From Paenibacillus sp. (GTDB lineage: Bacteria; Bacillota; Bacilli; Paenibacillales; YIM-B00363): 64,000 nucleotides of DNA. Location of the stretch: the NCBI RefSeq assembly GCF_035645195.1, contig NZ_DASQNA010000041.1, positions 124,001 through 188,000 on the forward strand. The letters run 5' to 3'. This document shows positions 1,929 through 59,244 of the stretch, piece by piece; position 1 is the first letter of the stretch, and the number at the start of each line of letters is the position of its first letter. Both the position numbers and the translations under genes were made by a program. Below the pieces are notes generated by a model. The model ran no database searches and was not told where the DNA came from. It worked only from the letters and a program-made list of their open reading frames with translations.

Positions 1929-2804
1929 ATGAAACTCGACAACAAAATCGGCGTGATCGTAGACAGCTTTGGAGTCGGCGTGCGCGAAGGGCTGAAGAAG
2001 GCGAAAGAGGTCGGAGCGGAAGGCGTTCAAATTTATGCCGTCAAAGGCGAAATGGACCCAGACAACCTAACCCCGGCCGCTCGGAAGGAATTAAAATCGT
2101 ATATCGAGGACTTGGGTCTGGAAATTTCGGCGTTGTGCGGCGATCTGGGCGGGCACGGCTTTCAAGACCGCGCCGTCAACCGCGAGAAGGTGGAGAAATC
2201 CAAGCGCATTCTCGATCTCGCCGTCGAGCTCGGCACGAACATCGTCACGACGCATATCGGCATCGTGCCGCACGACGCGAACGGACCGATTTACGCGGCG
2301 ATGCAGGAAGCTTGCGAAGAGCTTAGCCGGTACGCGAACAGCTTGAACGCGTATTTCGCGATCGAGACCGGTCCCGAGACGGCCGCGCATCTGAAAGCGT
2401 TCCTCGATACGCTGAGCGGCAAAGGCGTATCCGTCAATTTCGATCCGGCGAACATGGTGATGGTGACGGGCGACGATCCGGTTGCAGGCGTCCATATTTT
2501 GAAAGACTATATCGTGCACACGCATGTGAAAGACGGCGTCCGCCATCGCGAGGTCGACCCCCGGGCGGTATACGGCAGCTTGGACACGGAGGGGATGGAT
2601 CACGACAAAATCGCGGAAATCCTTAAAGAAGGCCAGCTGTTCGAGGAGCTGCCGCTCGGCGAAGGCGCCGTCGACTTCGACGCGTACTTCCGGGCGCTGC
2701 AAGAGATCGGCTATCGCGGGTACTTGACGATCGAGCGCGAGGTCGGCGACTCCCCGGAGGACGACATTCGCAAAGCGGTGCAATTCATCCGCGCCTATCG
2801 CTGA
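1929..2804 (+). CDS. sugar phosphate isomerase/epimerase (TIM barrel)
   Basis: Xylose-isomerase-like TIM-barrel protein (AP endonuclease family 2 fold), 291 aa, with strong SD AAGGAGG at 1915-1921. Metal-binding type positions are visible: Glu in AIETGPET, Asp in NFDPANM, His in HTHVKDG and Glu in TIEREVG near the C-terminus. Such enzymes isomerise or epimerise sugars, keto-sugars or inositol derivatives; the substrate is not evident. Same strand and close spacing to the upstream genes suggest one transcript. Confidence 0.9.
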   Translation: MKLDNKIGVIVDSFGVGVREGLKKAKEVGAEGVQIYAVKGEMDPDNLTPAARKELKSYIEDLGLEISALCGDLGGHGFQDRAVNREKVEKSKRILDLAVELGTNIVTTHIGIVPHDANGPIYAAMQEACEELSRYANSLNAYFAIETGPETAAHLKAFLDTLSGKGVSVNFDPANMVMVTGDDPVAGVHILKDYIVHTHVKDGVRHREVDPRAVYGSLDTEGMDHDKIAEILKEGQLFEELPLGEGAVDFDAYFRALQEIGYRGYLTIEREVGDSPEDDIRKAVQFIRAYR

Positions 2805-2837
2805 CGGCTTCCAAGGCGCGGCGGGGAGGCTTACGGC

Positions 2838-3272
2838 ATGAACGAACGGGAACGAGAGTCGTGGAAACGGCTGAAGGAGCAGCTGCAGGCGGAGGAGGAA
2901 GAGCTCCGCATGTACCGCCAATACAACGATCGGGTGGACGAAGCGGTTCAAGAGTTCGAGAAGAACGGCGGGCTCGAGCATGTGAAAGGGAAAGGCAAGC
3001 CGCTGCAGCTCGCGACCGGCGACCCGCTGTACGGCGTGCTCAAGACGGCCGGCGTGAAACCGCCGTGGCTGGAGTTGCAGCATGTCATTCGCGACGAGCT
3101 GCGCGAGCTGCTGAAGGAGCTTCGTCTCGGGACGGCGGTGCGAGCGGAGGAGACGCTCCGCAGCATTAACGGCCGCATCTCGAAATACAACCGCATCGTT
3201 CCGCATTATACGATGCAGCGCACGCCCGTTTCGCTCGAGACGATCGAGGACCAACTAAAGACGTGGGAATAA
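2838..3272 (+). CDS. DUF1992 (DnaJ-homologue subfamily C member 28-like) protein
   Basis: 144-aa protein with the DUF1992 signature: a charged helical N-terminus, then FEKNGGLEHVKGKGKPL matching the family GxGKPL motif near residues 40-55, then ELRELLKELRL. The eukaryotic relative is DNAJC28; the bacterial role is unknown and there is no J domain here. It is the last gene before a perfect palindromic terminator at 3279-3300, immediately beyond which a transposon-like element has inserted. Confidence 0.85.
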   Translation: MNERERESWKRLKEQLQAEEEELRMYRQYNDRVDEAVQEFEKNGGLEHVKGKGKPLQLATGDPLYGVLKTAGVKPPWLELQHVIRDELRELLKELRLGTAVRAEETLRSINGRISKYNRIVPHYTMQRTPVSLETIEDQLKTWE

Positions 3273-3278
3273 TCGATG

Positions 3279-3300
3279 GGGAGCCGCCCGGGCGGCTCCC
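3279..3300. terminator. palindromic terminator hairpin after the DUF1992 gene
   Basis: A perfect 22-nt palindrome (GGGAGCCGCC arm) is followed by a T-rich TGTTGCTTTG. The element insertion at 3311 cut the sequence right after this run, so the original T-rich tail may have been longer or different. Confidence 0.7.
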
Positions 3301-3305
3301 TGTTG

Positions 3306-3310
3306 CTTTG
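3306..3310. repeat. left copy of 5-bp target site duplication
   Basis: CTTTG directly before the left terminus TGTT of the element; an identical CTTTG follows the right terminus at 5581-5585. Confidence 0.85.
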
Positions 3311-3463
3311 TGTTATGAAAAAATAAAGTATTAGACTGAAATTGTTGAATTTGTGAATTTTTTTGAACCCCCAATCGGCTACCTAGGGAAAATAAGTTTT
3401 AGACTAATTCAGAAAATGAAACAGCGGCGTAACTAAGGACGTGAAAATAAAGTCTTAGACTGA
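3311..3463 (+). repeat. left end of element: terminal inverted repeat plus three transposase-site-like repeats
   Basis: Three direct copies of a site related to GAAAATAAAGTATTAGACTG lie at about 3320-3339, 3388-3407 (one base shorter, with changes) and 3443-3463 (one change). They are spaced 55-68 bp apart. The first lies ten bases inside the terminus TGTTATGAAA. This spaced arrangement resembles the Tn7 left end. Confidence 0.8.
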
Positions 3464-3482
3464 CGCGGTTTTTTTTGGTATT

Positions 3483-3507
3483 GGTTATGATAATAGCCCT
3501 TTTAGCA
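3483..3507 (+). repeat. left copy of internal 25-nt imperfect direct repeat
   Basis: GGTT-GATAAT-CTTTTAGCA pattern upstream of the first cargo gene; matches 20 of 25 positions with 5471-5495 downstream of the third cargo gene. It includes a possible -10 region (TATGATAAT at 3486-3494), so it could be a promoter-region duplicate. Confidence 0.6.
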
Positions 3508-3562
3508 CACATACCCACTCCGCTTAAACCGCTGGGTCATATACTAACTTACCTGCTGTGGA

Positions 3563-4288
3563 ATGGACGGTGAAAAGATGAAGGGAAGGCCTCGCAAGGA
3601 TACAAGCACGAAACAGGAAAAACTCACAATTTCTCAGGCATTCATGAGGGTTACAGTAGCGCTTCCTCAAGCACCTTCAATTGAAGACCCGTTACCGACT
3701 CACCTAACCTTCTTCGTTGATTCTAGATTCACAACGGCGCAGAGAAATCGGATTACCAGGTTAATTACAGGCGTTATGTCTCAATGGGCCCGATATTACA
3801 TTAATAGAGATAATGGGGTTAACAGTCCACTGAAACAGTGTACGGCTCGATATGCCCGCTTTAACCTAGCCCCTGAATGGTTTGAAGACAAGATAGCTAA
3901 CGGTAACGTCGCCGTGGATGTGATGATGGATGGTTTAACACGGGCATTTATTGCTAATGGTTTTGGGAGAGCGTTTCGTGCTCAAATTATGTATCCTTCT
4001 CCAGGTACGACACCCCCAAAGGCTATTAGAGGTGCAAACGCTTCTGATCCTGACAGGAACTCATTATCTGTAATCATCAATCCGAAAACATTAAGCAGAA
4101 TCGACCTTGGTGACACGACTCTTATCGGTTCATTATTGCACGCATGGTTGCATCGGATTGGTTATCGTCATCCTGCCGAACTCTATACGTCGTACTTTAT
4201 CGGTGAGGCAGCAATGTGTCTAATGCATGGCAATACTAGCAAACAAAGCGGAGTACCCGACAGCAGGTTAACTGCATTTCTAGATTGA
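3563..4288 (+). CDS. metzincin-like protein with HAxxHxxGxxH motif, cargo gene A
   Basis: 241-aa protein of unknown function. I see a metzincin-like layout: a strand plus helix LTFFVDSRFTTAQR (residues 48-61), continuing to a Trp-containing helix near 75, then HAWLHRIGYRHP at 193-204, and a candidate Met-turn at M218 in GEAAMCLM. The three zinc-type histidines (193, 197, 203) and Gly200 are in the exact HExxHxxGxxH spacing, but the catalytic Glu is Ala194. Expected outcome: zinc binding without normal proteolysis. No signal peptide or membrane segment. A basic N-terminus (KGRPRK) is absent from its paralogue at 4802. An alternative start is ATG 3578. First gene of a three-gene cassette in the transposon-like element. 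The fold assignment is my inference from motif and spacing. Confidence 0.75.
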   Translation: MDGEKMKGRPRKDTSTKQEKLTISQAFMRVTVALPQAPSIEDPLPTHLTFFVDSRFTTAQRNRITRLITGVMSQWARYYINRDNGVNSPLKQCTARYARFNLAPEWFEDKIANGNVAVDVMMDGLTRAFIANGFGRAFRAQIMYPSPGTTPPKAIRGANASDPDRNSLSVIINPKTLSRIDLGDTTLIGSLLHAWLHRIGYRHPAELYTSYFIGEAAMCLMHGNTSKQSGVPDSRLTAFLD

Positions 4289-4313
4289 CTCATACCTTTT
4301 TGGGGGAAGGAAA

Positions 4314-4775
4314 GTGACACACCAAGATATTAACTCCTTGATTGAATACGCTAAAAGGTTTCTTGTGGCTAGCCCTAAACTTCGAACGACACCTTATCCC
4401 AAGTTACGAAAAATGGATTGTTCCTCTTTCACGCAGCATGTCTATGGAAAATACGGCATTAAGCTGCCGCGCAAAGCCAGAGAGCAAGCAAAGCACGGAA
4501 TAGAAGTGGATAAAACCGACTTGAAGGAAGGCGACTTATTATTTTTCTATGTACCCGAAAGGTTCCCAACAAACTACATCCCCGGACACGTCGGCATTTA
4601 TCTTGGTGATGGAACCATGATCCACTGCCTACCCTCGCCCAAGAGAGTATTAATCTCCGATATCAATACCCCACACAAGAAAAAGACGTTCTTATTCGCT
4701 AAAAGAGTCATCCTACCGAACGACATATCCATATATGAGCAACACAAAGCGCTTAACGATTTTTGGAGGTTGTAG
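4314..4775 (+). CDS. NlpC/P60 family cysteine peptidase, cargo gene
   Basis: 153-aa NlpC/P60 (CHAP-like papain fold) hydrolase, a family that cleaves peptidoglycan stem peptides. The triad is visible: Cys36 in MDCSSF, His92 in GHVGIYLGDG and His104 in MIHC, with the usual 12-residue spacing between the two histidines; GDLLFF precedes the His. GTG start with GGGGGAAGG just upstream. Unlike housekeeping members it has no signal peptide, no SH3 or LysM domain, and barely anything besides the catalytic domain. It therefore stays cytoplasmic unless exported or released by another route. It lies 25 bases after gene A and about 20-26 bases before gene B, so the three are one operon. A toxin, effector or lysis-type role is possible but unproven. 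Confidence 0.85.
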   Translation: MTHQDINSLIEYAKRFLVASPKLRTTPYPKLRKMDCSSFTQHVYGKYGIKLPRKAREQAKHGIEVDKTDLKEGDLLFFYVPERFPTNYIPGHVGIYLGDGTMIHCLPSPKRVLISDINTPHKKKTFLFAKRVILPNDISIYEQHKALNDFWRL

Positions 4776-4801
4776 AAAACCTTTTGAAAGAGGGGATGAG
4801 G

Positions 4802-5470
4802 ATGAAAGCGTTTATTAGTCAATCGTTTAGACGGACTACAGTAACGCTTCCTCAAGCACCTGGAATTGAAGACCCGTTACCAACTCACTTAACCTTCTTT
4901 GTTGATTCCAGATTTACAACGGCTCAGAGGAGTAGGATACAAAGATTAATTTCCGGTATATTTGCACAATGGAATGAGTATTACGCCGACCGAGATAATG
5001 GAGTTGATAGTCCTCTAAAGCAATGCACAGCTAGATATGCTCGATTTAATCTTGCCCCTGTTTGGTTTGAAGATAAGATAGCCAACGTGAATGTTGCCTT
5101 TGATGTAATGATGGAGGGTTTAACAAGAATGTTCATTGCAAATGGCTTTGGTAGAGCTGCCCGTGCACAAATTATGCATCCAGGTTCATCCACCCCACCA
5201 AAAGCTATCCGAGGTGTCAATGCTTCTAATCCCGACCAAAACTCATTGTCCGTCACAATTAACCCGAATACTCTCGGTCGGACCGATATCGTTGATGCAA
5301 CTCTTAGAGGCTCATTACTGCACGCATGGATGCATAGAGAAGGATATAGACACCCTGTGGGAAGGTATACATCTTTTATGATTGGGGAAGCAGCAATGTG
5401 CCTAATGAGAAATAACTCCAACAAACAAGCCGGTGTCCCAGACAGCAGATTTACCCAATTCTTAGATTAG
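4802..5470 (+). CDS. metzincin-like protein with HAxxHxxGxxH motif, cargo gene B
   Basis: 222-aa paralogue of the protein at 3563, highly similar over its whole length at both DNA and protein level, so the two arose by duplication. The zinc-type motif is HAWMHREGYRHP with His174, His178, His184 and Gly181, again with Ala (175) in place of the catalytic Glu, followed by the conserved GEAAMCLM (M199 as candidate Met-turn). The start at ATG 4802 fits SD GAGGGG at a 6-base gap; ATG 4796 or TTG 4763 are less likely. Retention of the Ala substitution in both divergent copies argues that it is functional, not decay. No signal peptide. Unknown function. Confidence 0.75.
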   Translation: MKAFISQSFRRTTVTLPQAPGIEDPLPTHLTFFVDSRFTTAQRSRIQRLISGIFAQWNEYYADRDNGVDSPLKQCTARYARFNLAPVWFEDKIANVNVAFDVMMEGLTRMFIANGFGRAARAQIMHPGSSTPPKAIRGVNASNPDQNSLSVTINPNTLGRTDIVDATLRGSLLHAWMHREGYRHPVGRYTSFMIGEAAMCLMRNNSNKQAGVPDSRFTQFLD

Positions 5471-5495
5471 GGTTGCGATAATCTCTCTTTTAGCA
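5471..5495 (+). repeat. right copy of internal 25-nt imperfect direct repeat
   Basis: Same GGTT-GATAAT-CTTTTAGCA pattern as 3483-3507. Here it directly follows the stop codon of cargo gene B and can also pair with itself (GGTTGC at 5471-5476, GCAACC at 5493-5498), so it may double as a weak terminator hairpin. Confidence 0.55.
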
Positions 5496-5510
5496 ACCTT
5501 ACATGGTCAC

Positions 5511-5580
5511 TAGTCTACAACTATATTTTCTCGGTCTAATACTTTATTTTCCCAGTCTAATACTTTATTTGCGTTGAACA
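5511..5580 (-). repeat. right end of element: three abutting inverted transposase-site-like repeats and terminus
   Basis: Reverse-complement copies of the left-end site lie at 5511-5530 (degenerate), 5533-5551 and 5553-5570, about 20-22 bp apart, then ten bases to the terminus ending AACA at 5580. Tight packing on this side and wide spacing on the other mirrors Tn7 right and left ends. Confidence 0.8.
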
Positions 5581-5585
5581 CTTTG
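5581..5585. repeat. right copy of 5-bp target site duplication
   Basis: CTTTG immediately outside the right terminus, identical to 3306-3310. Confidence 0.85.
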
Positions 5586-5657
5586 CCCCGTCTATCGCGG
5601 GCTCCGCGTGGGTACAATGGATGCGACAGGATCACATTACCCGGAGGTGTCGCGCAC

Positions 5658-7112
5658 ATGAACGGCGGCGCGCTCGCGTTGCATATGGATAAATACGAAG
5701 TCAACATGGCGTACGCCCATTGGCTTCACGGCACGCATCGGAAGCGGGCCGTATTCGAGCTTTATTTCCGCAAGCTTCCGTTCGGCAACGGATTCGCCGT
5801 TTTCGCCGGGCTGGAGCGGGTGATTGATTATTTGTCGACGCTTCGTTTCGACGAAGAGGACATTCGTTACCTGCGGGAGCAGGAGGAAGCGTACCGGGAA
5901 CCGTTTCTCGACGAGCTGCGCCGCTTTCGCTTCGCCGGCGACCTGTTCGCCGCGCAGGAGGGGACCATCGTGTTTCCGAACGAGCCGCTGCTTCGCGTGG
6001 AAGCGTCGGTGTTCGAAGCGCAAATGATCGAGACGGCGCTGCTCAATTTCGTCAATTTCCAAACGTTAATCGCAACGAAAGCGGCGCGCATCAAGCGCAC
6101 GTCGCCCGGCGACAACTTTCTGGAGTTCGGTTCGCGGCGGGCCCAGGAGGCGGACGCGGCCATTTGGGGGGCGCGGGCCGCGTATATCGCCGGCTTCGAC
6201 GCCACGTCGAACTTGCTCGCCGGGAAACGGTTCGGCATTCCGACGGCGGGGACGCATGCGCACTCGTGGGTGCAGGCGCACGATTCCGAGCTCGAGGCGT
6301 TCGAAAAATACGCCGAAGCGCTGCCGGATCAAGTGACGCTGCTCGTCGATACGTACGATACGCTGTCCCTCGGCGTCCCGCATGCGATTCGCATCGCCCA
6401 GCGGCTGGAAGCGCGCGGCAAGCGGATGCGCGCCATCCGGATCGACAGCGGCGACCTCGCCGCGCAGGCGAAGGCGGCGCGCGCCATGCTTGACGAGGCG
6501 GGGCTCGGTTACGTCCGGATCGTCGCTTCGAACGACTTGGACGAGCATGTCATCCTTCATTTGAAGGCGCAGGGCGCTCCGATCGACAGCTGGGGCGTCG
6601 GCACGAAGCTGATTACGGGCGGGGAAGAGTCGGCGCTCGGGGGCGTCTACAAGCTGGTCGCCCGGGAGACGGACGACGGCTGGCAGCCGGTGATCAAAAT
6701 TTCGGGCAACGCGGAGAAAACGGTGACGCCGGGCGCCAAAACGGCGTATCGGTTGATCCGAGCCGATACCGGCCGAGCCGCGGCCGACGCGCTGGCGTTC
6801 CCGTCGGAGGACGACGTGCGCGGCGCGAAGGCGACCGTGTTCGTCGACCCGTCGGATCCGCTGCAGCGGCGCGAACTCGAGCGGTACGAAGCGGTGCCGC
6901 TGCTTACGCAGGTCGTCGCCCGAGGCGAACTGCGGGAAGAGGGGCTGCCCGATTTAGGGCGCATCCGGGAGCACCATGCCGCCCAATTGCGGCTGTTCGC
7001 TCCCGAGCATTTGCGCGCCCTTAATCCGGAACCGTATCCCGTCTGGCTGTCCGAGGACGTCTGGAAGCTGAAGACGGATATGATCCGCCGATACCGATCG
7101 TCGCGCGCCTGA
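5658..7112 (+). CDS. pncB: nicotinate phosphoribosyltransferase
   Basis: Converts nicotinate and PRPP to nicotinate mononucleotide in NAD salvage; cytosolic, 484 aa, a normal length. Family landmarks: the MDKYEVNMAY N-terminus, the FLEFGSRRAQ segment, GIPTAGTHAHSW, RIDSGDL and WGVGTKLITGG (phosphoribosyl-binding). The start at ATG 5658 is set by GGAGGTG at 5643-5649; the longer open frame upstream runs into the mobile element end and is not coding. A -10-like TACAAT at 5613-5618 has no good -35, and the element inserted 33 bp upstream of it, so the insertion may have changed the promoter or its upstream region. Confidence 0.93.
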   Translation: MNGGALALHMDKYEVNMAYAHWLHGTHRKRAVFELYFRKLPFGNGFAVFAGLERVIDYLSTLRFDEEDIRYLREQEEAYREPFLDELRRFRFAGDLFAAQEGTIVFPNEPLLRVEASVFEAQMIETALLNFVNFQTLIATKAARIKRTSPGDNFLEFGSRRAQEADAAIWGARAAYIAGFDATSNLLAGKRFGIPTAGTHAHSWVQAHDSELEAFEKYAEALPDQVTLLVDTYDTLSLGVPHAIRIAQRLEARGKRMRAIRIDSGDLAAQAKAARAMLDEAGLGYVRIVASNDLDEHVILHLKAQGAPIDSWGVGTKLITGGEESALGGVYKLVARETDDGWQPVIKISGNAEKTVTPGAKTAYRLIRADTGRAAADALAFPSEDDVRGAKATVFVDPSDPLQRRELERYEAVPLLTQVVARGELREEGLPDLGRIREHHAAQLRLFAPEHLRALNPEPYPVWLSEDVWKLKTDMIRRYRSSRA

Positions 7113-16572: not shown

Positions 16573-18150
16573 CTATGAAGCTTCCTCGAGCTCGAAATAA
16601 AACTCGACGCCGCCCTCCAGATTCCTCGCGCCGAACGCGCTCCCGTGCAGCCGCAAAATTTGCCGCACGATCGCAAGGCCGATGCCCGAGCCGCCGTGCC
16701 CGCGGTGGCGCGATTTTTCCACGCGGTAGAAGTGCGTCCAAATGTGCTCGAGCTCCGCTTCCGGAATCGGCTCGCCGTCGTTCCAGACGACGACGCGCAC
16801 GGTGCCGGGAGCCGGCCGGTCGATCCGCACGCCGAACGCGCCGCCGTCGGGCGTATGGCGGATCGCGTTGCTGAGCAGATTGGTCAGCACTTGCCGAATC
16901 CGGAACGGGTCCGCTCGAACGTCCGCGGCGGCGCCCTCGATTTCCAGCAGCTTGCCGTCGTAATAAGGCGCCAGCTTCTGCGCCGCCTCGCGAGCCGTCT
17001 CGGCGATGTCGAACGGCACGGGTTCGACGGTGTATTGCCCCGCTTCGAGCTGCGACAAATCGAGCATGTCGAGCACGAGCTTCTCCATCTGCGCCGCCTC
17101 GTCCATAATGACTTCCACGTAATGCGCCTTGCGCGCCTCGTCCCCCAAATTGTCCTGCAGCGCCTCCGCATAGCCGCTGATGAGGCTGATCGGCGTCTTC
17201 AATTCGTGCGAGACGCCGGCGACGAATTCTTTCCGAAGCTGCTCCAGCCGTTTCTCCCGCTCGATGTCCGCTTGCAGCTGCGCGTTCGTGCGCGTCAACT
17301 CCTCCATCGCGCGCTGCAAGTTGTCCGCGAGAAAATTGAGCGTCTCCGACAAATTGCCGAGCTCGTCCTTGCGCGCAAGGCGGCTGCGTTCGCTGAAATC
17401 GAGCTTCGCCATCCGTAGCGCGACTCGGTTGAGGGCGCGCAGCGGCTTCGTCAGCATGCCCGAGTAGACGAAGGCGAGCAGGAGCACGATGGCGATCGCC
17501 GCGCCGTACATCACGAAATAAATATCTCCGAGCACCATGACGGCGTCGCCGACCGGTTGGAGGGAGGTGACCGCGAACAGCAGCGCCGTGTCCCCGGTCT
17601 CGGTTTCCGCCGGGGCGATGACCAGCATGTGCGTCGCCGTTTCCAGACCCGGCAGCGGAACGTCGAACGTGCGGATGACCGCTCGCCCTTCCTCCATCAC
17701 GGCGCGCAGCGCCTCCTCGTCGCTCGCCCAATCGCGAATGCCGAGCAGCAGCTTGTCCCGGTCAAAATCGAGAAACGGCATCAGCGGCGCGAGTTGCGGC
17801 GCGCCGCCCGGCTCGACTCGCAGCGTTCGAACGATCGTGCGGTTCCCGTCGCCGGAGCCTTGGCTCAGCGTTAAATGCAGCTGCCCGTCTTGGAAGGTGC
17901 CGATCGCCGTCATCGCGCCGAACCGATCCTCGAATCCAAGAAAATAAAGCGGAATCGTATTCGGATTCTCCTTCTCCCGAACGAATCGGTCGCGCAGCTC
18001 GATCCATTCGTTCCTGATCTCGGACTCCTTCTTGTATAAATAATATTTCTCGAAAAACAGCAGCTGTGACAGCATCAGCAGCGTCAGCAGCCCGATTAAG
18101 ACGGCGCTGGTGATCGCGAACAGCTTGAACGCGATGCCTCGAAACCTCAT
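16573..18150 (-). CDS. sensor histidine kinase (OmpR-type system)
   Basis: 525-aa membrane kinase: TM helix near residues 10-30, an extracellular sensor domain of about 180 residues, a second TM near 205-225, HAMP, a HisKA domain with the phospho-acceptor in GVSHELKTPISL, and a HATPase with NLLSNAIRHTPDGG and GIGLAIVRQI. It lies directly after its response regulator (one base apart) and divergent from the ABC/sigma operon at 18.9 kb, which it may control. Signal unknown. Confidence 0.9.
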   Translation of the reverse strand: MRFRGIAFKLFAITSAVLIGLLTLLMLSQLLFFEKYYLYKKESEIRNEWIELRDRFVREKENPNTIPLYFLGFEDRFGAMTAIGTFQDGQLHLTLSQGSGDGNRTIVRTLRVEPGGAPQLAPLMPFLDFDRDKLLLGIRDWASDEEALRAVMEEGRAVIRTFDVPLPGLETATHMLVIAPAETETGDTALLFAVTSLQPVGDAVMVLGDIYFVMYGAAIAIVLLLAFVYSGMLTKPLRALNRVALRMAKLDFSERSRLARKDELGNLSETLNFLADNLQRAMEELTRTNAQLQADIEREKRLEQLRKEFVAGVSHELKTPISLISGYAEALQDNLGDEARKAHYVEVIMDEAAQMEKLVLDMLDLSQLEAGQYTVEPVPFDIAETAREAAQKLAPYYDGKLLEIEGAAADVRADPFRIRQVLTNLLSNAIRHTPDGGAFGVRIDRPAPGTVRVVVWNDGEPIPEAELEHIWTHFYRVEKSRHRGHGGSGIGLAIVRQILRLHGSAFGARNLEGGVEFYFELEEAS

Positions 18151-18151
18151 C

Positions 18152-18838
18152 TTAATCGCCCGCCTTCAGCATATATCCGTTCCCGCGCACCGTGCGGATC
18201 CAGTCGGCGCAATGCCCGAGCTTTTGGCGCAGCCGTTTCACATGCGTGTCCACCGTGCGCACGTCGCCGAAATAGTCGTGGCCCCAGACGCTGTCGAGCA
18301 GCTGATCCCGCGACAAGACGAGGTTGCGGTTGCGGCACATGAACAGCAGCAGATCGAACTCTTTCGGCGTCAGCGCGAGCGGCTCGCCGCGGAGACGCGC
18401 CTCGAACGTCGCTTCGTTGATTTCGAGGTCGCCGGCGCGCACGAGCGCGGCGTCAACATCGCTCCCGGACCGCTCCGCGCGCTTCAGGAGCGCCCGCACC
18501 TTGGCGACGAGCACTTTGGGGCTGAACGGCTTCGTCACGTAGTCGTCCGCGCCGAGCTCGTAGCCGAGCAGCTTGTCCGCTTCCTCCGATTTCGCGGTTA
18601 AGATGACGATCAGCACGTCGGACTTTCGGCGCAGCGTCCGGCACACTTCGAATCCGTCCACGAACGGCATCATCACGTCCAGAATGACCAGATCGGCCGG
18701 ATCCTTCGCGAACGCCTCGAGCGCCTGCCGGCCGTCGCGGGCGCGGAGCAGCCGGAACGGCTGCTCTTGCAAGTAGTCGCATATCAAGTCTTGCATTCTC
18801 GGTTCGTCCTCGACGACCATGATCGTTTTCACCGGCAA
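18152..18838 (-). CDS. OmpR/PhoB family response regulator
   Basis: 228 aa: receiver domain with phospho-acceptor Asp54 in VILDVMMP and Lys103 in YVTKPF, then a winged-helix domain with LTPKEFDLLLF and the C-terminal RTVRGNGYML. The start is TTG 18838 or GTG 18832; GGGAG lies five bases before the TTG. A TATAAT on the minus strand (18878-18883) is a plausible -10. Partner of the kinase at 16573. Confidence 0.92.
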   Translation of the reverse strand: MPVKTIMVVEDEPRMQDLICDYLQEQPFRLLRARDGRQALEAFAKDPADLVILDVMMPFVDGFEVCRTLRRKSDVLIVILTAKSEEADKLLGYELGADDYVTKPFSPKVLVAKVRALLKRAERSGSDVDAALVRAGDLEINEATFEARLRGEPLALTPKEFDLLLFMCRNRNLVLSRDQLLDSVWGHDYFGDVRTVDTHVKRLRQKLGHCADWIRTVRGNGYMLKAGD

Positions 18839-18945
18839 CGATTCTCCCTTCTTGTCACACGCCCGTCACATTGCAAGATTATAGTTCTATTCATACCCGA
18901 TCCGCCGCTAGAAAGTCCAACTATTATTTTACCCGGGAGGTTGTT

Positions 18946-19836
18946 ATGGTTCAAAGCCGTCTTCGCCGTCTGTCGGCGCCGCTGCGGGGGGAAGGAGGGA
19001 TCGCCCTTGCCTTCCTGCTCCCGAGCGCCGCCGGGTTTTGCCTCTTTTTCGCGCTTCCGTTCGCCGTAGGTTTCTATTATTCGCTGGTAGACCATCCGGT
19101 GCGAGGCGACTTCGTCGGATTCGCGAACTACCGGGAAGTGCTCGCGTCCGCATCGTTCCGCAAAGCGGCCGGCAATTCGCTGTGGTTCACGCTCGTCAGC
19201 GTTCCGGCTGTCATGTCGTTGTCGCTCGCTCTCGCGCTGCTCTTGAACCGCAACCTGCCGTTCCGCGATTGGCTGCGAACCGCCTACGTCATGCCGCTCG
19301 TCGTGCCGGTCGCCTCGGTCGTGTTGTTTTGGCAGGTGCTGTTCGACGGCTTCGGAGCGGTCAACGGCTGGCTGCTGTCGATCGGCGCCGTTCCCCGCGA
19401 TTGGATGAAAACGGAAGCGGCCCGTTGGGTGCTCGTCTGCATGTACATCTGGAAAAACGTCGGATACAACATGGTGATGTTCCTCGCAGGACTGCAGATG
19501 ATTCCGAAGGATTACTACGAAGCGGCAAGCATGGACGGCGCGGGGCGGCTGAGGCAGTTCGTGTCCATTACGCTCGTATATTTGACGCCGTCGTCGTTTT
19601 TCGTGCTGATCATGTCGATCATCAATTCCTTCAAGGTGTTTCGGGAGACGTACCTCGTCGCGGGGGAATACCCGCATGACAGCATTTATTTGCTGCAGCA
19701 TTATATGAACAACATGTTTTTATCTCTGAACTATCAGAAGCTGACGTCCGCCGCGTACTTGATGGCGCTGGCGATCGCGGTCGCGGTCGTCGCGCTGTTC
19801 CGGGTGGAATCGCAATTTCGGAAGGCGTTGGAGTAG
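18946..19836 (+). CDS. ABC transporter permease (carbohydrate type, MalF-like)
   Basis: 296 aa, six hydrophobic segments, with the cytoplasmic EAA loop YYEAASMDGAGRLRQFVSITLVYLTP that contacts an ATPase. Start ATG 18946 with GGGAGG at 18935-18940. Begins a five-gene unit (permease, permease, HlyD-like adaptor, binding protein, sigma factor). No ATPase gene is in the unit. Substrate not evident. Confidence 0.88.
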   Translation: MVQSRLRRLSAPLRGEGGIALAFLLPSAAGFCLFFALPFAVGFYYSLVDHPVRGDFVGFANYREVLASASFRKAAGNSLWFTLVSVPAVMSLSLALALLLNRNLPFRDWLRTAYVMPLVVPVASVVLFWQVLFDGFGAVNGWLLSIGAVPRDWMKTEAARWVLVCMYIWKNVGYNMVMFLAGLQMIPKDYYEAASMDGAGRLRQFVSITLVYLTPSSFFVLIMSIINSFKVFRETYLVAGEYPHDSIYLLQHYMNNMFLSLNYQKLTSAAYLMALAIAVAVVALFRVESQFRKALE

Positions 19837-19847
19837 GGGGTGTCGGA

Positions 19848-20702
19848 ATGACGCGGATACGGGAAAGCGTCGTCGCGGCGCTGCTGGCGGCGGGGGCGGC
19901 GCTCATGCTGCTGCCGCTCGTCGTGACGCTGACGAATTCGGTCATGACGGAAGAAGAGATTGGAATCAATTACGACGCTATCGGTTCCACGGCGGAAGCG
20001 GGGGCGTACGCGAATCTCAAACTGGTGCCCGACATGGTCTCGTTGGCGCAGTATGCGGTCGTGTTGTTGGATAAAAGCCAATTTTTGACGATGTTTTGGA
20101 ACTCCGTCGCGCTTGTCGTCCCGATCGTCGCGGGCCAAACGCTCGTCGGCGCCATGGCGGCGTTCGCGTTCGCGAAATTGCGTTTTCCCGGCAGGGAGCG
20201 GCTGTTTCTCGTGTACCTTATCACGATGCTGATGCCGTTCCAGGTGACGCTCGTGCCGAATTATTTGGCGATGGAGCGGCTCGGGCTGCTCGATACGCGC
20301 TGGGCGATCATCTGGCCGGGGGTGTTCGCGGCGTTCGGCGTGTTCTTGCTCCGCCAGTTCATGCTGCACATTCCGAAGGCGTACGTCGAGGCGGCGCAGA
20401 TCGACGGCGCGTCGTATGCGTACATTTTCGCGCGCATCATCGTGCCGATGACGGCGCCCGGCATCGCGGCCTTGTCGATTTTGGCGTTCGTCGACTACTG
20501 GAACATGGTGGAGCAGCCGCTCATTTTTATTCGCGACGCGTACAAACTGCCGTTGTCCATTTATTTGGCCAATGTCAACGAGGGGGACCGGGGCGTCGCC
20601 TTCGCCGCTTCCGTGCTGTACATGGCGCCGATGATTTTCGTGTTCCGGTACGGAGAGAACGAGTTGATCGAGGGCATACAGCTCTCCGGCGTCAAAGGTT
20701 GA
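19848..20702 (+). CDS. ABC transporter permease (carbohydrate type, MalG-like)
   Basis: 284 aa, partner of the upstream permease. EAA loop YVEAAQIDGASYAYIFARIIVPM; the C-terminus ends ENELIEGIQLSGVKG as in MalG-type proteins. It has an expanded first extracellular region (residues about 35-70). Starts 11 bases after the upstream stop. Confidence 0.88.
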   Translation: MTRIRESVVAALLAAGAALMLLPLVVTLTNSVMTEEEIGINYDAIGSTAEAGAYANLKLVPDMVSLAQYAVVLLDKSQFLTMFWNSVALVVPIVAGQTLVGAMAAFAFAKLRFPGRERLFLVYLITMLMPFQVTLVPNYLAMERLGLLDTRWAIIWPGVFAAFGVFLLRQFMLHIPKAYVEAAQIDGASYAYIFARIIVPMTAPGIAALSILAFVDYWNMVEQPLIFIRDAYKLPLSIYLANVNEGDRGVAFAASVLYMAPMIFVFRYGENELIEGIQLSGVKG

Positions 20703-20724
20703 AAGGAAGGATGGGGATGGTCGG

Positions 20725-21828
20725 TTGATCGCTGCAAAATCGGAGGAAGCTCGACAGCGCGAACGGCGCCGCGCGCTGCGCATCGTCATGGCGGCGTTTT
20801 TCGGGGGGCTGCTCCTCTTGTCGATGTTCGCGAATACGTATCGGCAGCTGACGCTGCCCAAGGTTCAGGCGGAGGAGGCGAAGCTCGGCGGATTATCGTT
20901 CACGATCGAAGGCGAGGGCACGGTCGAAGCGATGAGGGAAACCGAGGTGTACGACCGGACGGGATGGAAGGTCGCCGAGGTGCTGGTAGAAGAGGATCAA
21001 TCTGTTAAAAAAGGCGAGCCGCTGCTTCGTCTCGATACGGAAGCCGCGGAGCGGGAGCTGTCGGACGAACGGATCCGACTGAAGAAATACGAGTTGCAAT
21101 TGAACAGGCTGTTGGATCAATACAAGAAAGCGTCTATGGGCGGCAGCGAAGAGCAAGCGAAAACCGCGGAGCAGGACGTTCGCTCCCTGCGTCTCGACAT
21201 CGAACTGCAGCGGCGGAAGATCGATCGGCTGCGCGAAAGGATCGACGAAGAGGGCACGGTGCGCGCGCCCGTCGACGGCATCGTGTTGAACGTTTCCGCT
21301 AAGGAGGGACTGCCTAACGGGCAAGGCGCGGCGGTCGTGCTCGCGGACGCGGCGGACGGCTGGGGGGTGTCGGTCGAGATCGACGAGGAATTGGCGTCGT
21401 ACATCGCGCCGGGCCAAGAGGTGACGATGCAAATCATCGGCGACGAATACCGGACGGCGCACGCGACGCTCGAAAAAATCGAAGACGGCGGCCAGGGCAA
21501 TCCTCGGAAGCTGCTTCGATTCCGATTCGCGGACGGAACGGTGCAAGGCGGGGAACGAGTGAGGTTCCGGTGGACGAACCAAACCCGGCAGCCCGGTCTG
21601 CTCGTGCCGAACGAAGCAGTGAAACAGGACGGGAGCGGCACCTACGTCTACGTCGTGAACGAGAAGACGAGTCCGCTCGGCAACGAATTCACCGTCCAGA
21701 AGGTGTACGTCAGCACGGGCGATTCGGACGCGGCGAGCACGCTCGTCGTCGGCGGATTGTCGCCCAAAGACCGGGTCGTGAAGGAAACGTCGGCGCCGCT
21801 GAACGACGGCGACCGCGTTCGCTATTAA
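20725..21828 (+). CDS. HlyD/MFP-like membrane fusion (adaptor) protein
   Basis: 367 aa, TTG start after AAAGGAAGG. One N-terminal TM helix (about 20-37), a split biotinyl-lipoyl-like domain (TGWKVAEVLVEEDQSVKKGEPL and VRAPVDGIVLNV) around a long coiled coil (about 115-170), then a beta-barrel domain and a C-terminal VSTGDSD segment. Such adaptors usually serve MacB-type exporters. Here it sits between importer permeases and a binding protein, with no exporter gene nearby, which is odd. It may instead couple the transporter to the cell envelope or signalling; that is speculation. Confidence 0.8.
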   Translation: MIAAKSEEARQRERRRALRIVMAAFFGGLLLLSMFANTYRQLTLPKVQAEEAKLGGLSFTIEGEGTVEAMRETEVYDRTGWKVAEVLVEEDQSVKKGEPLLRLDTEAAERELSDERIRLKKYELQLNRLLDQYKKASMGGSEEQAKTAEQDVRSLRLDIELQRRKIDRLRERIDEEGTVRAPVDGIVLNVSAKEGLPNGQGAAVVLADAADGWGVSVEIDEELASYIAPGQEVTMQIIGDEYRTAHATLEKIEDGGQGNPRKLLRFRFADGTVQGGERVRFRWTNQTRQPGLLVPNEAVKQDGSGTYVYVVNEKTSPLGNEFTVQKVYVSTGDSDAASTLVVGGLSPKDRVVKETSAPLNDGDRVRY

Positions 21829-21849
21829 TCAATGAATGGAGGATAAGAG

Positions 21850-23320
21850 ATGAACATGAAACGGAAAAAGGTTGCGTGGATCGCGATGGGGCTGGCGATG
21901 TTGTTGACGGCTTGCAGCGGGGGGGGCGGCTCCGGCAGGAGGCAACGACAGCTCCGGCTCCGGCTCCGGCGGAGGCAACGAGGTGCATCGGGAAGGAGGA
22001 AGCGGCGGAGGCCAGGAGGTGCATCAAGAAAGCGGGGGCGGTTCAGGGGAAAAGAAAACGGCGGTTACCGTATCAGTGCCGAAAAACAGCAGGTTTCTGC
22101 AGCAGGCCGAAGCCGAATTCGAGCAGGCGAATCCGACGATCGACATTCAAATTCAATCGTACGCCGCATCCCCCGAAGCTCAAGGCCCGGTCGTGGAAGA
22201 GCTCGGCGGCGGACTCGACGAAGCGACGCTGGAGAAATTCCGCTCGACCGTGAACACCGAGTTGATGTCGGGCCAAGGAGCCGATTTGATCGCGGTCGAG
22301 TCGCTCGCCTACGGGAAATATGCGGAGCAAGGCATGCTCGTCGATTTGACGGAACGGCTGCAGAAGGACGCCGCAACGAAGACGGACGAACTGAACGCGG
22401 GCGTGCTGGAAGGCGTCAAGGTGAACGGTCGGCAAGCGGCGCTCCCGATTTACTACAACTTAAATTTGATCGTGGGGAACGCCAAGCTGTTGAACGACGC
22501 CGGACTCTCCGTCGACGATCGAACGTGGACGTGGCAGGAACTGCTGCAGGCCGGGGAGCGGGCGCTCGCTTCGCGGCCGGGCGCCGCGCAAGTCGTCTTG
22601 GCCGGAACGAGCCCGGAGGAAGTGCTCGCCCGCATCGTCCAATCCGAGTTCGGACAGTACGCCGATGCCGCCGCCAAAACCGCGAATTTTACGAACGATT
22701 CATTCATCTCTCTGCTCCAAGAATTGAAGCGCCTATCGGATGCGGGACTGATCGACGCCGATGTCGAAACGGCCATGCAGGATTTGGACGTATTCAAATC
22801 GCTGCAGATGAAACGTCCGATGGAACTGTTCATGATGCCGAAAATCGCTTATCAAGGATCCGGGGAAGTATATTGGGCGCCCGGCGGCGGGGAAAGCCAA
22901 GGCATCTCCTACAATTCGGGTTTGATGCTGGCCATGAACAGCAATTCGAAGGTTCCGGAGGAAGCGTGGAAGTTTCTTTCGTTCCTGCTGTCGGATTCGG
23001 TGCAGTCGCATCCGAGCGTGGAAGGGTTTCCGGTCCGGAAGGCGGCGCTGAAGGAGATGTTGAACCGGGTCGTGGACATGATGAGCAAAGGCCAAATCCG
23101 GATGTCCGGTCCGGCCGGCGACACGCCCCCCGCGCCGACGGAGGCGGAGATCGAAGCGATCGCCGCATTGACGGAGCAAGTCGGGGCGTATACCGGCAGC
23201 GACCCGCAAATCCTGAGCATGGTCAAGGAGGAAGCGGCTTCCTTCTTCAACGGGGCGATGTCCGCCGAGGACGCGGCGGAGCTGATCCAAAACCGCGTCG
23301 GCACGTACTTGAATGAATAA
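21850..23320 (+). CDS. extracellular solute-binding lipoprotein, frameshifted at a G8 tract
   Basis: Family 1 (sugar/oligosaccharide) binding protein. A lipoprotein signal peptide with lipobox LLTAC opens in one frame; at the run of eight G (21919-21926) the reading frame must shift by one to continue into a Gly/Ser linker and the full binding domain (EFEQANPTIDIQIQSY to the C-terminus at 23320). Deleting one G restores a continuous protein of about 490 residues. So this is either a sequencing or assembly error, a phase-variable tract, or a real inactivation. The domain itself looks intact. The end overlaps the sigma factor start by eight bases. Confidence 0.8.
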
Positions 23321-23882
23321 CGGCGCGTTTCAGGACGGCTTCGCCGCCGCCGTCGAGCCGCATCTTCCGCAGCTGAAACGGTACTGCGCGAGGCTCGCCC
23401 GTTCGCCCTGGGACGCGGAAGATTTGCTGCAGACGACGTTGATGAAGGCGTATTTGCACTATTGCCGGACGGGCGCGATTCGAGGCGGCGCTGCGCTGCT
23501 GTACCGGGTCGCTCGCAACGCCTGGATCGACGATTACCGCCGGCGCCGCCGAATGTCGGAGGAGCTCCGCCAAGCAGCGGAGGCTCGAGGCGACTTGGAC
23601 TACGTGCTCGTCATCAGCTGCCTCGAAAGCTTGGCCGAACGGCTGCCGTCCCGCAGCGCGGAAATGTGGCTGCTCTCCGAATATTTCGGGTTTACGGTTC
23701 AGGAACTGGCCGATATGATGCACACGTCGGCATCCGCGGTGAAATCCCAGCTGCATCGAGCGAGAGGCCGGCTCCGCTCCGGAAGCCGTCTCGAGCCGCC
23801 CCGCGCCGCCGCGGACGGGGCTCGGCTGGAGCGCTGGGCGAGAGCGATCTTGTCGGGCGAACCCGACATTGCTTGTTCCTAA
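23313..23882 (+). CDS. ECF-type RNA polymerase sigma factor
   Basis: 189-aa sigma-70 family protein: region 2 with SPWDAEDLLQTTLMKAY and WIDDYRRRRR, region 4 with LAERLPSRSAEMWLLSEYFGFTVQELADMM and SASAVKSQLHRARGRLR. The ATG lies within the last codons of the binding protein gene (ATGAATAA), so its translation is coupled to the transporter. No anti-sigma factor gene is adjacent. Binding of ligand at the membrane might therefore be linked to sigma activity, but nothing in the sequence proves this. Confidence 0.85.
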   Translation: MNNGAFQDGFAAAVEPHLPQLKRYCARLARSPWDAEDLLQTTLMKAYLHYCRTGAIRGGAALLYRVARNAWIDDYRRRRRMSEELRQAAEARGDLDYVLVISCLESLAERLPSRSAEMWLLSEYFGFTVQELADMMHTSASAVKSQLHRARGRLRSGSRLEPPRAAADGARLERWARAILSGEPDIACS

Positions 23883-23895
23883 TCGAGTTAACGCG

Positions 23896-23936
23896 AACAC
23901 TTCGTCCGCACCGCGGGCGAAGTGTTTCTTTTTTCT
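23896..23936 (+). terminator. intrinsic terminator after the ECF sigma gene
   Basis: AACACTTCG / CGAAGTGTT arms with further GC pairing in the loop, followed by TCTTTTTT. Confidence 0.85.
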
Positions 23937-54934: not shown

Positions 54935-54979
54935 TAAGGTATCCAAAGACAAGTAAATAGTCGGGTTGGAGTATTGGAG

Positions 54980-55024
54980 AAACCTAATTCACCGCTGAGC
55001 GCGCACAGCGGTAGATTTAGGTTT
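54980..55024 (+). terminator. leader terminator ahead of the ABC operon (candidate GlpP target)
   Basis: AAACCTAA pairs with TTAGGTTT (8 bp) and encloses ACCGCT/AGCGGT; CTTTCGTT follows. It lies between glpP and the binding protein gene, so read-through would need antitermination. Confidence 0.65.
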
Positions 55025-55057
55025 CTTTCGTTATTAAAAAAATGGAGGGAAACACAC

Positions 55058-56404
55058 ATGTTAAAGAAATGGTCGATGGCGGCAGTAACGATGGTAACGG
55101 CAGTGACGATGACGGCTTGCGGCGGCGGCACGGCGCAGCAGACGCAAGGCGGCGCAGAGGGCGGAAGCGCGCCGGCGGCGACGAGCGGAGCGAGCGCGAA
55201 CAGCGGCTCCGGCGAAAAGATTACGATCAAGTACTGGTACGCGTTCGGCGGCAAAATCGAGGAAGCGAAAAAACATCTCGTCGAAGAGTTCAATAAATCG
55301 CAGGACCGCATCGAAGTCATTGCCGAGCATCAAGGCAATTACGAAGACTTGCACGCGAAGGTGCAGGCGTCGTTCGCGGCGGGCAACGCCCCGGCCGTTA
55401 GCGATCTGGAGATCGCGTCCACCGGCGTGTTCGCGCGCTCGGGCATGATCCAGGAGCTGACGGCGCTCGCTGAACGCGACGCGGAAGAAGTACAAATCGA
55501 AGACTTCAACCCGGGTCTGATGGGCAACGCATACGTCGACGGCAAGCTGTACGGCCTTCCGTTCATGCGTTCCACGCCGATCCTCTACAAAAACAACACG
55601 ATGCTGAAGGAAGCCGGGCTCGATCCGGAAGGTCCGCGCAACTGGGCGGAGCTCGAGGAATATTCCCGCGTCCTGAAGGAGAAGGGCAAGAACGGCCTCA
55701 CGATGCCGGCGGACATCTGGTTCTACGAAGCGTTCGTCGCGCAAAGCGGCGGCACGGTGCTCAGCGAAGACGGCAAAACGGCGACGTTCAACGGCCCGGC
55801 AGGCGTAGAGCCGGTAGCATTCTGGGAACGTCTGCATGACGAAGGTCTCATTAAGATTCCGGTCGGCAACGAAGGCGGCGCGACGGCGGACAAAGACTGG
55901 GCGAACCAGCTGTCGGCATTCAAATTCGGTTCGACGGCCGGCGTTACGGGGAGCCTCGAAGTCGCGAACGGCGCAGGGTTCGAAATGGGCACGTCGTTCA
56001 TGCCTGCGAACAAATCGTACGGCGTGCCGACGGGCGGCTGCCAGCTCGTCATGACGTCGAAGCTTAGCGACGAAGAGAAAGAAGCGGCTTGGGAATTCAT
56101 TAAGTTTATGACGACGAAGGAAAACACGATTTATCAGCACAAGCATGTAGGTTACTTGCCGACGCGCCTGTCCGCAGTGGAAACGGAAGAACTGCAGCAG
56201 CTGTATAAGGAAGTTCCGCACTTCAAAACGGCGTTCGAGCAGCTCGAATACGCAAGACCGCGCCCGATGGAGAACGCGTACCCGGAAATCGCGACGATCA
56301 TTAAGCAAGCGATCGAGTTGGCCATTCTCGATAAGAACGTAACGCCGCAGCAGGCGATGGACCAAGCCGCGGAGAAGGCGAACAAGCTGTTGAGCGCGCA
56401 ATGA
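55058..56404 (+). CDS. extracellular solute-binding lipoprotein, UgpB-like
   Basis: 448 aa; lipobox MTAC near residues 20-23, Gly/Ala-rich linker, then KYWYAFGGKIEEAKKHLVEEFNKSQDRIEV, the start typical of UgpB-type binding proteins, and NNTMLKEAGLDPEGPRNW. Ligand is inferred as glycerol-3-phosphate or a glycerophosphodiester from the GlpP context. SD GGAGGG. First gene of a full importer with ATPase and two permeases. Confidence 0.88.
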   Translation: MLKKWSMAAVTMVTAVTMTACGGGTAQQTQGGAEGGSAPAATSGASANSGSGEKITIKYWYAFGGKIEEAKKHLVEEFNKSQDRIEVIAEHQGNYEDLHAKVQASFAAGNAPAVSDLEIASTGVFARSGMIQELTALAERDAEEVQIEDFNPGLMGNAYVDGKLYGLPFMRSTPILYKNNTMLKEAGLDPEGPRNWAELEEYSRVLKEKGKNGLTMPADIWFYEAFVAQSGGTVLSEDGKTATFNGPAGVEPVAFWERLHDEGLIKIPVGNEGGATADKDWANQLSAFKFGSTAGVTGSLEVANGAGFEMGTSFMPANKSYGVPTGGCQLVMTSKLSDEEKEAAWEFIKFMTTKENTIYQHKHVGYLPTRLSAVETEELQQLYKEVPHFKTAFEQLEYARPRPMENAYPEIATIIKQAIELAILDKNVTPQQAMDQAAEKANKLLSAQ

Positions 56405-57273: not shown

Positions 57274-57286
57274 GGAGGCGGAACGA

Positions 57287-58354: not shown

Positions 58355-58355
58355 G

Positions 58356-59228: not shown

Positions 59229-59244
59229 GAAAGGAGGCGCATCG

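What the first reader, a model, noticed from the sequence alone, without database searches (positions are those of the whole stretch)
18946..23882. Importer permeases, HlyD-like adaptor, binding protein and ECF sigma in one operon without ATPase
Gene order is unusual: binding protein last, an exporter-type adaptor in the middle, and a sigma factor translationally coupled to the binding protein. No anti-sigma and no ATPase. A divergent two-component system sits beside it. It could be a sensing or trans-envelope signalling system built from transporter parts.
Basis: inference. Interest (0 to 1): 0.58.

Follow-up and report, generated by a model that had tools for sequence, protein, structure and literature searches.

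The report
Sensor-controlled importer–adaptor operon with sigma factor
A bacterial operon joins sugar-importer parts, an exporter-type adaptor and a gene-switch protein; the transporter core, often beside a sensor pair, recurs in related bacteria, the gene-switch protein is an occasional add-on, and what the machine moves or senses is still unknown.

Summary
The five genes are there: two MalF/G-type permeases, a full-length MacA/MexA-type adaptor, a sugar-type binding protein and an ECF sigma overlapping its stop codon. The binding-protein gene has a frame break at or near a run of eight G.

The core is not a local oddity. In 100 related loci fetched from the same order, perm2 accompanies the adaptor in 100, perm1 in 96, the binding protein in 96. 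An OmpR/PhoB-type regulator lies within 4 kb in 64 of 100, against 0 of 11 importer pairs in random control regions. In the window and 9 of these loci a regulator-type box precedes the operon's likely -10 at one fixed spacing.

The sigma is not a core part: an ECF sits directly at the operon end in 4 of 100 loci. But two separate ECF subfamilies were recruited there, one almost confined to these operons (10 of 11 hits).

The missing ATPase is ordinary (PMC7658222).

Best reading: a two-component-controlled importer–adaptor module whose sigma, where present, is a second-tier output. Sensing by the transporter itself is possible, unproven.

The parts
16573..18150 (-). Sensor histidine kinase (HAMP, HisKA, HATPase_c; WalK/PhoR-like; about 180-residue extracellular PAS-like domain, with an SLQP motif invariant in 11 aligned kinases at the foot of TM2)
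18152..18838 (-). OmpR/PhoB-type response regulator, divergent from the operon
18853..18870 (+). Predicted response-regulator box, 11-bp direct repeat TGTCACACGCCCGTCACA, followed after 9 nt by a possible -10 (TATAGT, 18880-18885)
   Evidence: only match in the window; the same box and spacing in 9 related loci, 0 in 620 kb of control
18946..19836 (+). MalF-type permease (perm1); EAA loop present; the proline of the LP step is Val here and in most relatives
19848..20702 (+). MalG/UgpE-type permease (perm2); canonical EAA loop
20725..21828 (+). HlyD/MacA/MexA-type adaptor: N-terminal membrane helix, lipoyl, alpha-hairpin (2 x about 34 residues), barrel and membrane-proximal parts
21850..23320 (+). 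Sugar-type lipoprotein solute-binding protein; reading frame breaks at or near the G8 run 21919-21926; mature part open from about 21930 to the stop at 23318-23320
23313..23882 (+). ECF sigma factor (here called sig1), start codon overlapping the SBP stop; no obvious Shine-Dalgarno sequence
23895..23927 (+). Intrinsic-terminator-like hairpin followed by a T-rich tail; likely end of the operon

Best explanation
The locus is one member of a conserved importer-adaptor module. A lipoprotein sugar-type binding protein delivers a glycan-like ligand to two MalF/G-type permeases, which keep recognisable ATPase-docking loops and are presumably powered by a shared MsmX/UgpC-type ATPase encoded elsewhere (inferred). 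The MacA-type adaptor presumably stands on this complex and reaches into the wall space, organising or gating it (inferred). Transcription starts from a promoter where the divergent PhoB-like regulator binds a tandem box in place of the -35 (predicted; box and spacing shared by 10 loci), so the WalK-like kinase switches the operon on. In the window an ECF sigma has been added to the 3' end and is probably translated by coupling to the binding protein. With no anti-sigma gene beside it, it is controlled by being made, and passes the two-component signal on to a second regulon: kinase, regulator, operon, sigma, further genes. Shown by sequence: parts, order, conservation, box, start/stop overlap and repeated presence of sigmas at this place. 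Inferred: ATPase identity, ligand, adaptor role, regulator binding, sigma regulon.
For: Quartet conserved: in 100 loci perm2 100, perm1 96, SBP 96; adaptor found in 152 of 392 order genomes at E<=1e-20. TCS linkage: RR within 4 kb in 64 of 100 loci against 0 of 11 importer pairs in 31 random 20-kb regions (Fisher p 3.7e-5). Box TGTCAYA-N5-RTCAYA: once in the window and once each in 9 of 100 operon loci, every hit within 340 nt of the 5' end of the perm1 open frame, 0 in 620 kb of control; 9 nt and then TAnnnT in 10 of 10. EAA loops: perm2 E 111, first A 112, G 112 of 112; perm1 E 106, second A, G and following A 108 of 108. Four UgpC-family ATPases over cut-off in the genome. The sigma start overlaps the SBP stop in the window, L144 and L163, and a probable TTG start lies 1 nt after it in L039. 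No anti-sigma gene before the terminator-like hairpin. Precedent for an ECF controlled only by a TCS: SigE/CseBC (passages of PMC6767563, and PMC8999054).
Against: No expression, binding or transport data exist. The box is a prediction, absent (in this form) from 91 of the 100 loci, among them L156, which has a window-type kinase and RR, and the near relatives L044, L045, L047 and L050. 36 of 100 loci show no OmpR-type RR within 4 kb. 5 of the 11 control pairs have less than 4 kb of sequence on one side, so that control is weaker than it looks. perm1's loop is altered: the first A is Thr in 66 of 108 and A in 15, the D is Glu in 85. An anti-sigma elsewhere in the genome was not sought. The SBP frame is broken in this assembly, so the local copy may not work. 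The sigma's targets were not sought.
Confidence: 0.52

Rival explanations
1. The transporter complex itself is the sensor: binding protein, permeases and adaptor relay ligand occupancy or envelope state directly to the neighbouring kinase (as BceAB does to BceS; recalled), and transport is secondary or absent.
For: 31 of 64 measurable neighbouring kinases have 37 or fewer residues between their last two TM windows (one, L046, probably an artefact); two of these that were scanned are VanS-like (351.5 and 375.4 bits against a cut-off of 400). Kinase types differ between clades while the quartet stays. An SLQP motif at the extracellular foot of TM2 is invariant in 11 window-type kinases. 99 of 106 SBPs end in Asn-Glu, 62 in YLNE.
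Against: The window's own kinase has an extracellular domain of about 180 residues with a PAS-like fold. Both EAA loops are recognisable, as expected of an ATP-driven transporter. Short loops were measured by hydropathy only, and 8 of 72 kinases could not be measured.
Confidence: 0.25
2. An ordinary oligosaccharide importer with an accessory adaptor; the sigma is a hitch-hiker that landed after a ready-made ATG and has no role in the system.
For: An ECF sits directly at the operon end in only 4 of 100 loci. An out-of-frame ATG by the stop is present in 33 of 106 SBP genes, most without a sigma after it. The binding protein matches sugar-type structures best (CbpC 7x0o, E 2e-19).
Against: Two separate ECF subfamilies sit at the same junction, and 10 of 11 sig2 hits are in these operons. 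sig1 relatives follow a MacA-MacB-type cassette in 11 of 20 loci, so the tie to adaptor-bearing transporters recurs.
Confidence: 0.25
3. The adaptor belongs to an exporter: the module moves something outward (a glycan or the large secreted protein encoded next door in many relatives), with the binding protein as an extracellular chaperone or sensor.
For: A MacB-type permease (MacB_PCD) is in 6 of 100 loci, in L149 shown between HlyD and SBP, and follows HlyD in the 4 loci found outside the order. The adaptor has the full MexA/MacA domain set. A loose family of large secreted proteins lies near many copies (one cluster of 35 ORFs from 34 of 108 loci).
Against: In the window there is no MacB-type permease, no ATPase and no such secreted protein in the operon. 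The permeases are closest to solved importers (7cad, SugA, MalF).
Confidence: 0.12
4. The frame break at the G8 run is a phase-variation or slippage switch that turns the binding protein on and off while keeping sigma coupled, since the shifted frame ends in the ATGA that contains the sigma start.
For: The frame from ATG 21850 stays open for 488 codons and stops at 23314-23316, inside the sigma start. The break lies at or near a long G run.
Against: Of 96 relatives' SBPs only 2 have any homopolymer of 7 or more near the lipobox, so it is not conserved. Long alternative frames are common in this GC-rich DNA. A draft-assembly error or a recent mutation is simpler.
Confidence: 0.05

Closest known systems
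MalFGK/MsmX-type (type I) carbohydrate importers of Gram-positives, such as AraNPQ-MsmX or MdxEFG-MsmX (PMC7658222)
   Same: SBP, two BPD_transp_1 permeases with EAA loops, no ATPase gene in the operon
   Different: A MacA-type adaptor gene sits between permease and SBP; perm1 has lost the LP proline in most members; an OmpR/PhoB-type TCS is often, and an ECF sigma sometimes, attached
MacAB-type pumps of Gram-positives (Spr0693-0695, YknWXYZ; abstracts in the listing)
   Same: Adaptor of the same fold family; relatives of the window's sigma often follow MacA-MacB-type operons; some relatives of the operon carry a MacB-type permease
   Different: In the window neither MacB permease nor ATPase is present; the TMDs are importer-type
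SigE-CseABC of Streptomyces coelicolor (ECF39)
   Same: ECF sigma without adjacent anti-sigma, neighbouring TCS, lipoprotein gene in the same operon, transcription probably ending after sigma
   Different: Here the sigma is last in a transporter operon; membership of ECF39 was not tested
ECF234 and ECF257 groups (named in PMC8999054; group models not held here)
   Same: ECF234 is described with a P. polymyxa representative and TCS neighbours; ECF257 with ABC transporter and AAA ATPase neighbours
   Different: Whether sig1 or sig2 belongs to either could not be tested
BceRS-BceAB transporter-coupled sensing (recalled)
   Same: TCS next to a transporter; short-loop kinases in about half of the measured relatives
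   Different: Different transporter fold, extra adaptor and SBP; the window's kinase has a full sensor domain

Membership tests
Type I (MalFG-type) ABC importer | Two BPD_transp_1 permeases with EAA loops | tested here: met
   perm1's loop deviates (LP proline is Val in 80 of 108 and Pro in 5; first A is Thr in 66)
Type I (MalFG-type) ABC importer | Extracellular solute-binding protein | tested here: met
   frame broken near the N-terminus in this assembly
Type I (MalFG-type) ABC importer | Cognate ATPase | tested here: inconclusive
   none in the operon; four UgpC-family ATPases over cut-off elsewhere in the genome
Type I (MalFG-type) ABC importer | ATP-driven uptake of a ligand | not testable with these tools
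   needs transport assays
Membrane-fusion/periplasmic adaptor (RND_mfp, MacA/MexA) | Profile score above curated cut-off and full lipoyl/hairpin/barrel/membrane-proximal fold | tested here: met
Tripartite or MacAB efflux pump | Cognate MacB, RND or MFS pump in the operon | tested here: not met
   absent in the window; MacB-type permease in 6 of 100 relatives
ECF sigma with cognate anti-sigma | Adjacent anti-sigma gene | tested here: not met
   terminator-like hairpin 12 nt after sigma; next gene is an MHYT-PAS kinase
TCS-controlled ECF (ECF39 SigE/CseBC logic) | Neighbouring TCS that activates the sigma's promoter | tested here: inconclusive
   TCS present; shared box and spacing before the operon; binding not shown
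TCS-controlled ECF (ECF39/ECF234 by sequence) | Match to the published ECF group models | not testable with these tools
   I found no ECF group models among the libraries offered
BceS-type intramembrane-sensing kinase pair | Kinase without extracellular domain | tested here: not met
   window kinase has about 180 extracellular residues; met by the hydropathy rule in 31 of 64 measured relatives

The most novel reading that the evidence does not exclude
The importer-adaptor-binding-protein complex is a dedicated envelope or glycan sensor that gates its neighbouring kinase through the membrane, and lineages repeatedly bolt ECF sigmas onto its 3' end to widen the output: a transporter-built signalling class, separate from Bce-type systems, spread through the Paenibacillus order.
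Probability: 0.22. Interest if true: 0.8.

Novelty: new variant of a known kind. Interest (0 to 1): 0.55.

Why it matters
If the reading holds, an operon type that is common in the Paenibacillus order, and for which I saw no description in the rows listed by my paper searches, couples an importer core to an exporter-type adaptor and to envelope-type two-component systems. It would be a testable case of a membrane-fusion adaptor serving an importer in a cell without an outer membrane, and of ECF sigmas recruited more than once as second-tier output of a two-component-controlled transporter. The shared box, the conserved SBP C-terminus and the changed perm1 loop give concrete handles for experiments.

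Tried and rejected
Sigma as a core component: rejected by the survey (4 of 100 loci with an ECF directly at the operon end). ECFs 2.3 to 6.2 kb downstream in 7 closely related loci were not counted: other genes lie between, in 5 of the 7 one on the opposite strand. The broad ECF HMM recovers 6 of 8 known sigma loci of the window's genome (3 of the 6 were in its training set), so I also scanned 20 short downstream ORFs with Pfam (20 of 47 candidates listed, the rest being known hits, regulators or ORFs left out as not sigma-like by eye): no further sigma. 'No ATPase' as a sign of pure sensing: rejected as ordinary (PMC7658222). Lost EAA loops as a sign of lost transport: not found, though perm1's loop is altered. 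A conserved G-run slippage site: not conserved. One gain of one sigma: rejected; sig1 and sig2 are separate clades and the sigma label needs 7 changes on the adaptor+perm2 tree (quick LG+G4 tree, root not inferred).

Led nowhere: paper search, no hit; collection scan, 5 loci, all Paenibacillus; Pfam on the large downstream secreted proteins (no family or weak ones for most); (one unrelated paper).

Limits of the counts: the 100 loci come from the most similar part of the hits listed (that list was cut), not a random draw; only 5 candidates a genome were scored. RR, HK and sigma were called by HMMs built here from these loci, so absences are not firm. Rows dropped or set apart: L117 was replaced by the longer L194 in the tree; L191 (sigma without HlyD in 12 kb, near a contig end) is the 1 of 11; L079's sigma was masked and not counted; L046 is probably an artefact in the short-loop count; L133 has only 472 nt after its operon. 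5 of 11 control importer pairs lack 4 kb on one side. I lowered the main confidence from 0.55 to 0.52 for that.
Full report
What is there. The window is part of a 5.95-Mb draft genome in 55 contigs. The five named loci found with its adaptor family are all Paenibacillus, so I take the order to be that of Paenibacillus (inferred). Five co-directional genes run from 18946 to 23882: two permeases, an adaptor, a binding protein (SBP) and an ECF sigma. The adaptor passes the curated cut-off of the RND adaptor family (TIGR01730, 119.8 bits against 94.9). Its model (mean pLDDT 86.1, pTM 0.50) has an N-terminal membrane helix, lipoyl part, a hairpin of two helices of about 34 residues, barrel and membrane-proximal parts and matches MexA, AcrA and MacA (TM-scores 0.53-0.56 for 6ta5, 9a2v, 5nik and 9qgy). 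The SBP is of the sugar type, best solved relative CbpC. The permeases resemble MalF/SugA- and UgpE-type importers. A terminator-like hairpin begins 12 nt after sigma.

The SBP gene changes frame at or near a run of eight G at 21919-21926: the lipoprotein signal is in one frame, the mature protein in another. Of 96 SBPs of relatives only 2 have a homopolymer of 7 or more near the lipobox, so a draft error or a recent mutation is likely. The frame begun at 21850 stays open to a TGA at 23314-23316, so ribosomes in either frame would end at the sigma start; I take this as coincidence in GC-rich DNA.

A conserved module. With the adaptor as query, 152 of 392 genomes of the order match at E<=1e-20, but in the window's own family only 2 of 8, itself included, at E<=1e-15. 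In 100 loci fetched with flanks perm2 is present in 100, perm1 in 96 and SBP in 96 (some absences are contig ends or masked frames, as in L039, whose contig ends inside perm2). A scan of 398 genomes of the phylum gave 9 genomes, the window's own included, at E<=1e-30. The four strongest matches outside the order (three genomes) also have perm1, perm2 and a MacB-type permease after the adaptor (these loci are about 4 kb long). Inside the order 6 of 100 loci have such a MacB_PCD protein.

The missing ATPase is ordinary. Multitask ATPases such as MsmX energise several importers that lack their own ATPase gene (PMC7658222, passages). This genome has four UgpC-family ATPases above cut-off. The docking (EAA) loops are recognisable: perm2 is canonical; perm1 keeps E in 106 of 108 and the second A, G and following A in all 108, but the first A is Thr in 66 and A in 15, the D is Glu in 85, and the proline of the LP step is Val in 80 and Pro in 5. 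This looks like a family signature rather than decay.

Two-component link. An OmpR/PhoB-type RR lies within 4 kb of the permease pair in 64 of 100 loci (RR or HK in 69), against 0 of 11 importer pairs in 31 random 20-kb regions (p 3.7e-5). Five of these 11 have less than 4 kb on one side; the RR density of the control, 7 in 620 kb, gives by my estimate about 0.1 expected per locus. Of 72 loci with a kinase in reach, 64 could be measured: 33 have a long extracellular part, 31 at most 37 residues between the two TM windows, one of these (L046) probably an artefact. The two short-loop kinases scanned are VanS-like, just under that family's cut-off. The window's kinase is of the long type; its model (mean pLDDT 74.8, below 50 in places) shows a PAS-like extracellular domain and weakly matches a WalK model best. 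Eleven aligned kinases share an invariant SLQP at the foot of TM2.

Predicted control site. Between the divergent RR and perm1 lies TGTCACACGCCCGTCACA (18853-18870), the only match in the window with up to 2 mismatches (29 of 100 shuffles had at least one such match, so alone it is weak). The form TGTCAYA-N5-RTCAYA occurs once in the window, once in each of 9 of the 100 operon loci (1.36 Mb), always within 340 nt of the 5' end of the perm1 open frame, and 0 times in 620 kb of control. In all 10 cases 9 nt and a TAnnnT hexamer follow. This is what a PhoB-type activator box in place of the -35 looks like (recalled). The 9 loci are ones with window-type kinases; L156, also with such a kinase, lacks the box, and so do L044, L045, L047 and L050. 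Other clades show other repeats there by eye, which I did not test.

The sigma. The window's sigma (sig1) starts inside the SBP stop with no obvious ribosome-binding site. In G003, the only other family genome with the operon at that threshold, a sigma that falls in the same clade follows the SBP, with a probable TTG start 1 nt after its stop. In L144 and L163 the overlap is as in the window, but their sigma (sig2) belongs to another clade, support 100/100. A search with sig2 found 11 matches at E<=1e-30 in 10 of 392 genomes; 10 of the 11 lie in these operons, 9 of them right after an SBP. One further locus, L175, has another ECF 86 nt after the adaptor. Among the 100 loci an ECF is directly at the operon end in 4 (L039, L144, L163, L175), and Pfam on 20 further short downstream ORFs found none. 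On the adaptor+perm2 tree the sigma label needs 7 changes, 6 forced by starred branches. Of 20 loci of sig1 relatives, 11 have the sigma after a MacA-MacB-type cassette (9 with adaptor, ATPase and permease all called, one of these with a TCS in between; 2 with one part not called), and in 1 the sigma precedes one; the other 8 do not show it. The common denominator is an adaptor-bearing transporter. The overlap is partly ready-made: 99 of 106 SBPs end in Asn-Glu, and 33 of 106 genes have an out-of-frame ATG there.

How it most likely works. A kinase-regulator pair switches on an importer-adaptor operon; where a sigma is attached, its synthesis carries the signal to a second set of genes. ECF sigmas without anti-sigma that are controlled by a TCS are known: SigE/CseBC (PMC6767563, passages) and groups listed in PMC8999054, among them ECF234 with a P. 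polymyxa representative (passages). I could not test whether sig1 or sig2 belongs to these groups. The adaptor's role in a cell without outer membrane, the ligand and the direction of transport remain inference. The MacB-type permease in some members, and the loose family of large secreted proteins near many copies (one cluster of 35 ORFs from 34 of 108 loci, some of them short pieces), keep an export role open.

Literature. Searches showed no paper on this hybrid operon among the rows listed (for 67, 69 and 77 only the first 10 of 36, 10 of 25 and 12 of 23). Passages of PMC8999054, PMC6767563 and PMC7658222 were read, no paper in full. Most subscription papers are not held, so an earlier description cannot be excluded.

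Noticed in passing
window 21919-21926: G8 run at or near which the SBP frame changes; the shifted frame ends in the ATGA that contains the sigma start.
   Followed up: partly
window 54974-60144: A second sugar-type importer gene group in the same window, with its own UgpC-like ATPase (393.5 bits, under the cut-off 432), a HAD-family hydrolase and, just downstream, a large AraC-type regulator.
   Followed up: partly
window 2001-6000: AT-richer stretch (GC 0.54 and 0.47) with two ORFs of 241 and 235 aa without Pfam matches, before a nicotinate phosphoribosyltransferase gene.
   Followed up: no
L077, L078, L080, L082, L083, L084, L086 and others: A recurrent MacA - MacB ATPase - MacB permease - ECF sigma gene order, in several loci with one or two two-component systems beside it.
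   Followed up: partly
L149, L154, L156, L160, L166, L167; L208-L210, L216: Versions of the operon with a MacB_PCD permease-like protein after the adaptor, an importer/exporter hybrid.
   Followed up: partly
L040-L043, L107, L120, L125, L141 and others: Large secreted proteins (about 600-1030 aa) of one loose family downstream of the operon, mostly without Pfam families.
   Followed up: partly
L144, L187, L188, L189: An 867-aa homologous protein follows the sig2 sigma in four loci; the L144 copy has Big_2 (bacterial Ig-like) domains.
   Followed up: no
SBP genes of 106 operon copies: The extreme C-terminus of the binding protein is conserved to the last residue (99 of 106 end in Asn-Glu), unusual for a solute-binding protein (recalled) and perhaps a contact site.
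   Followed up: no
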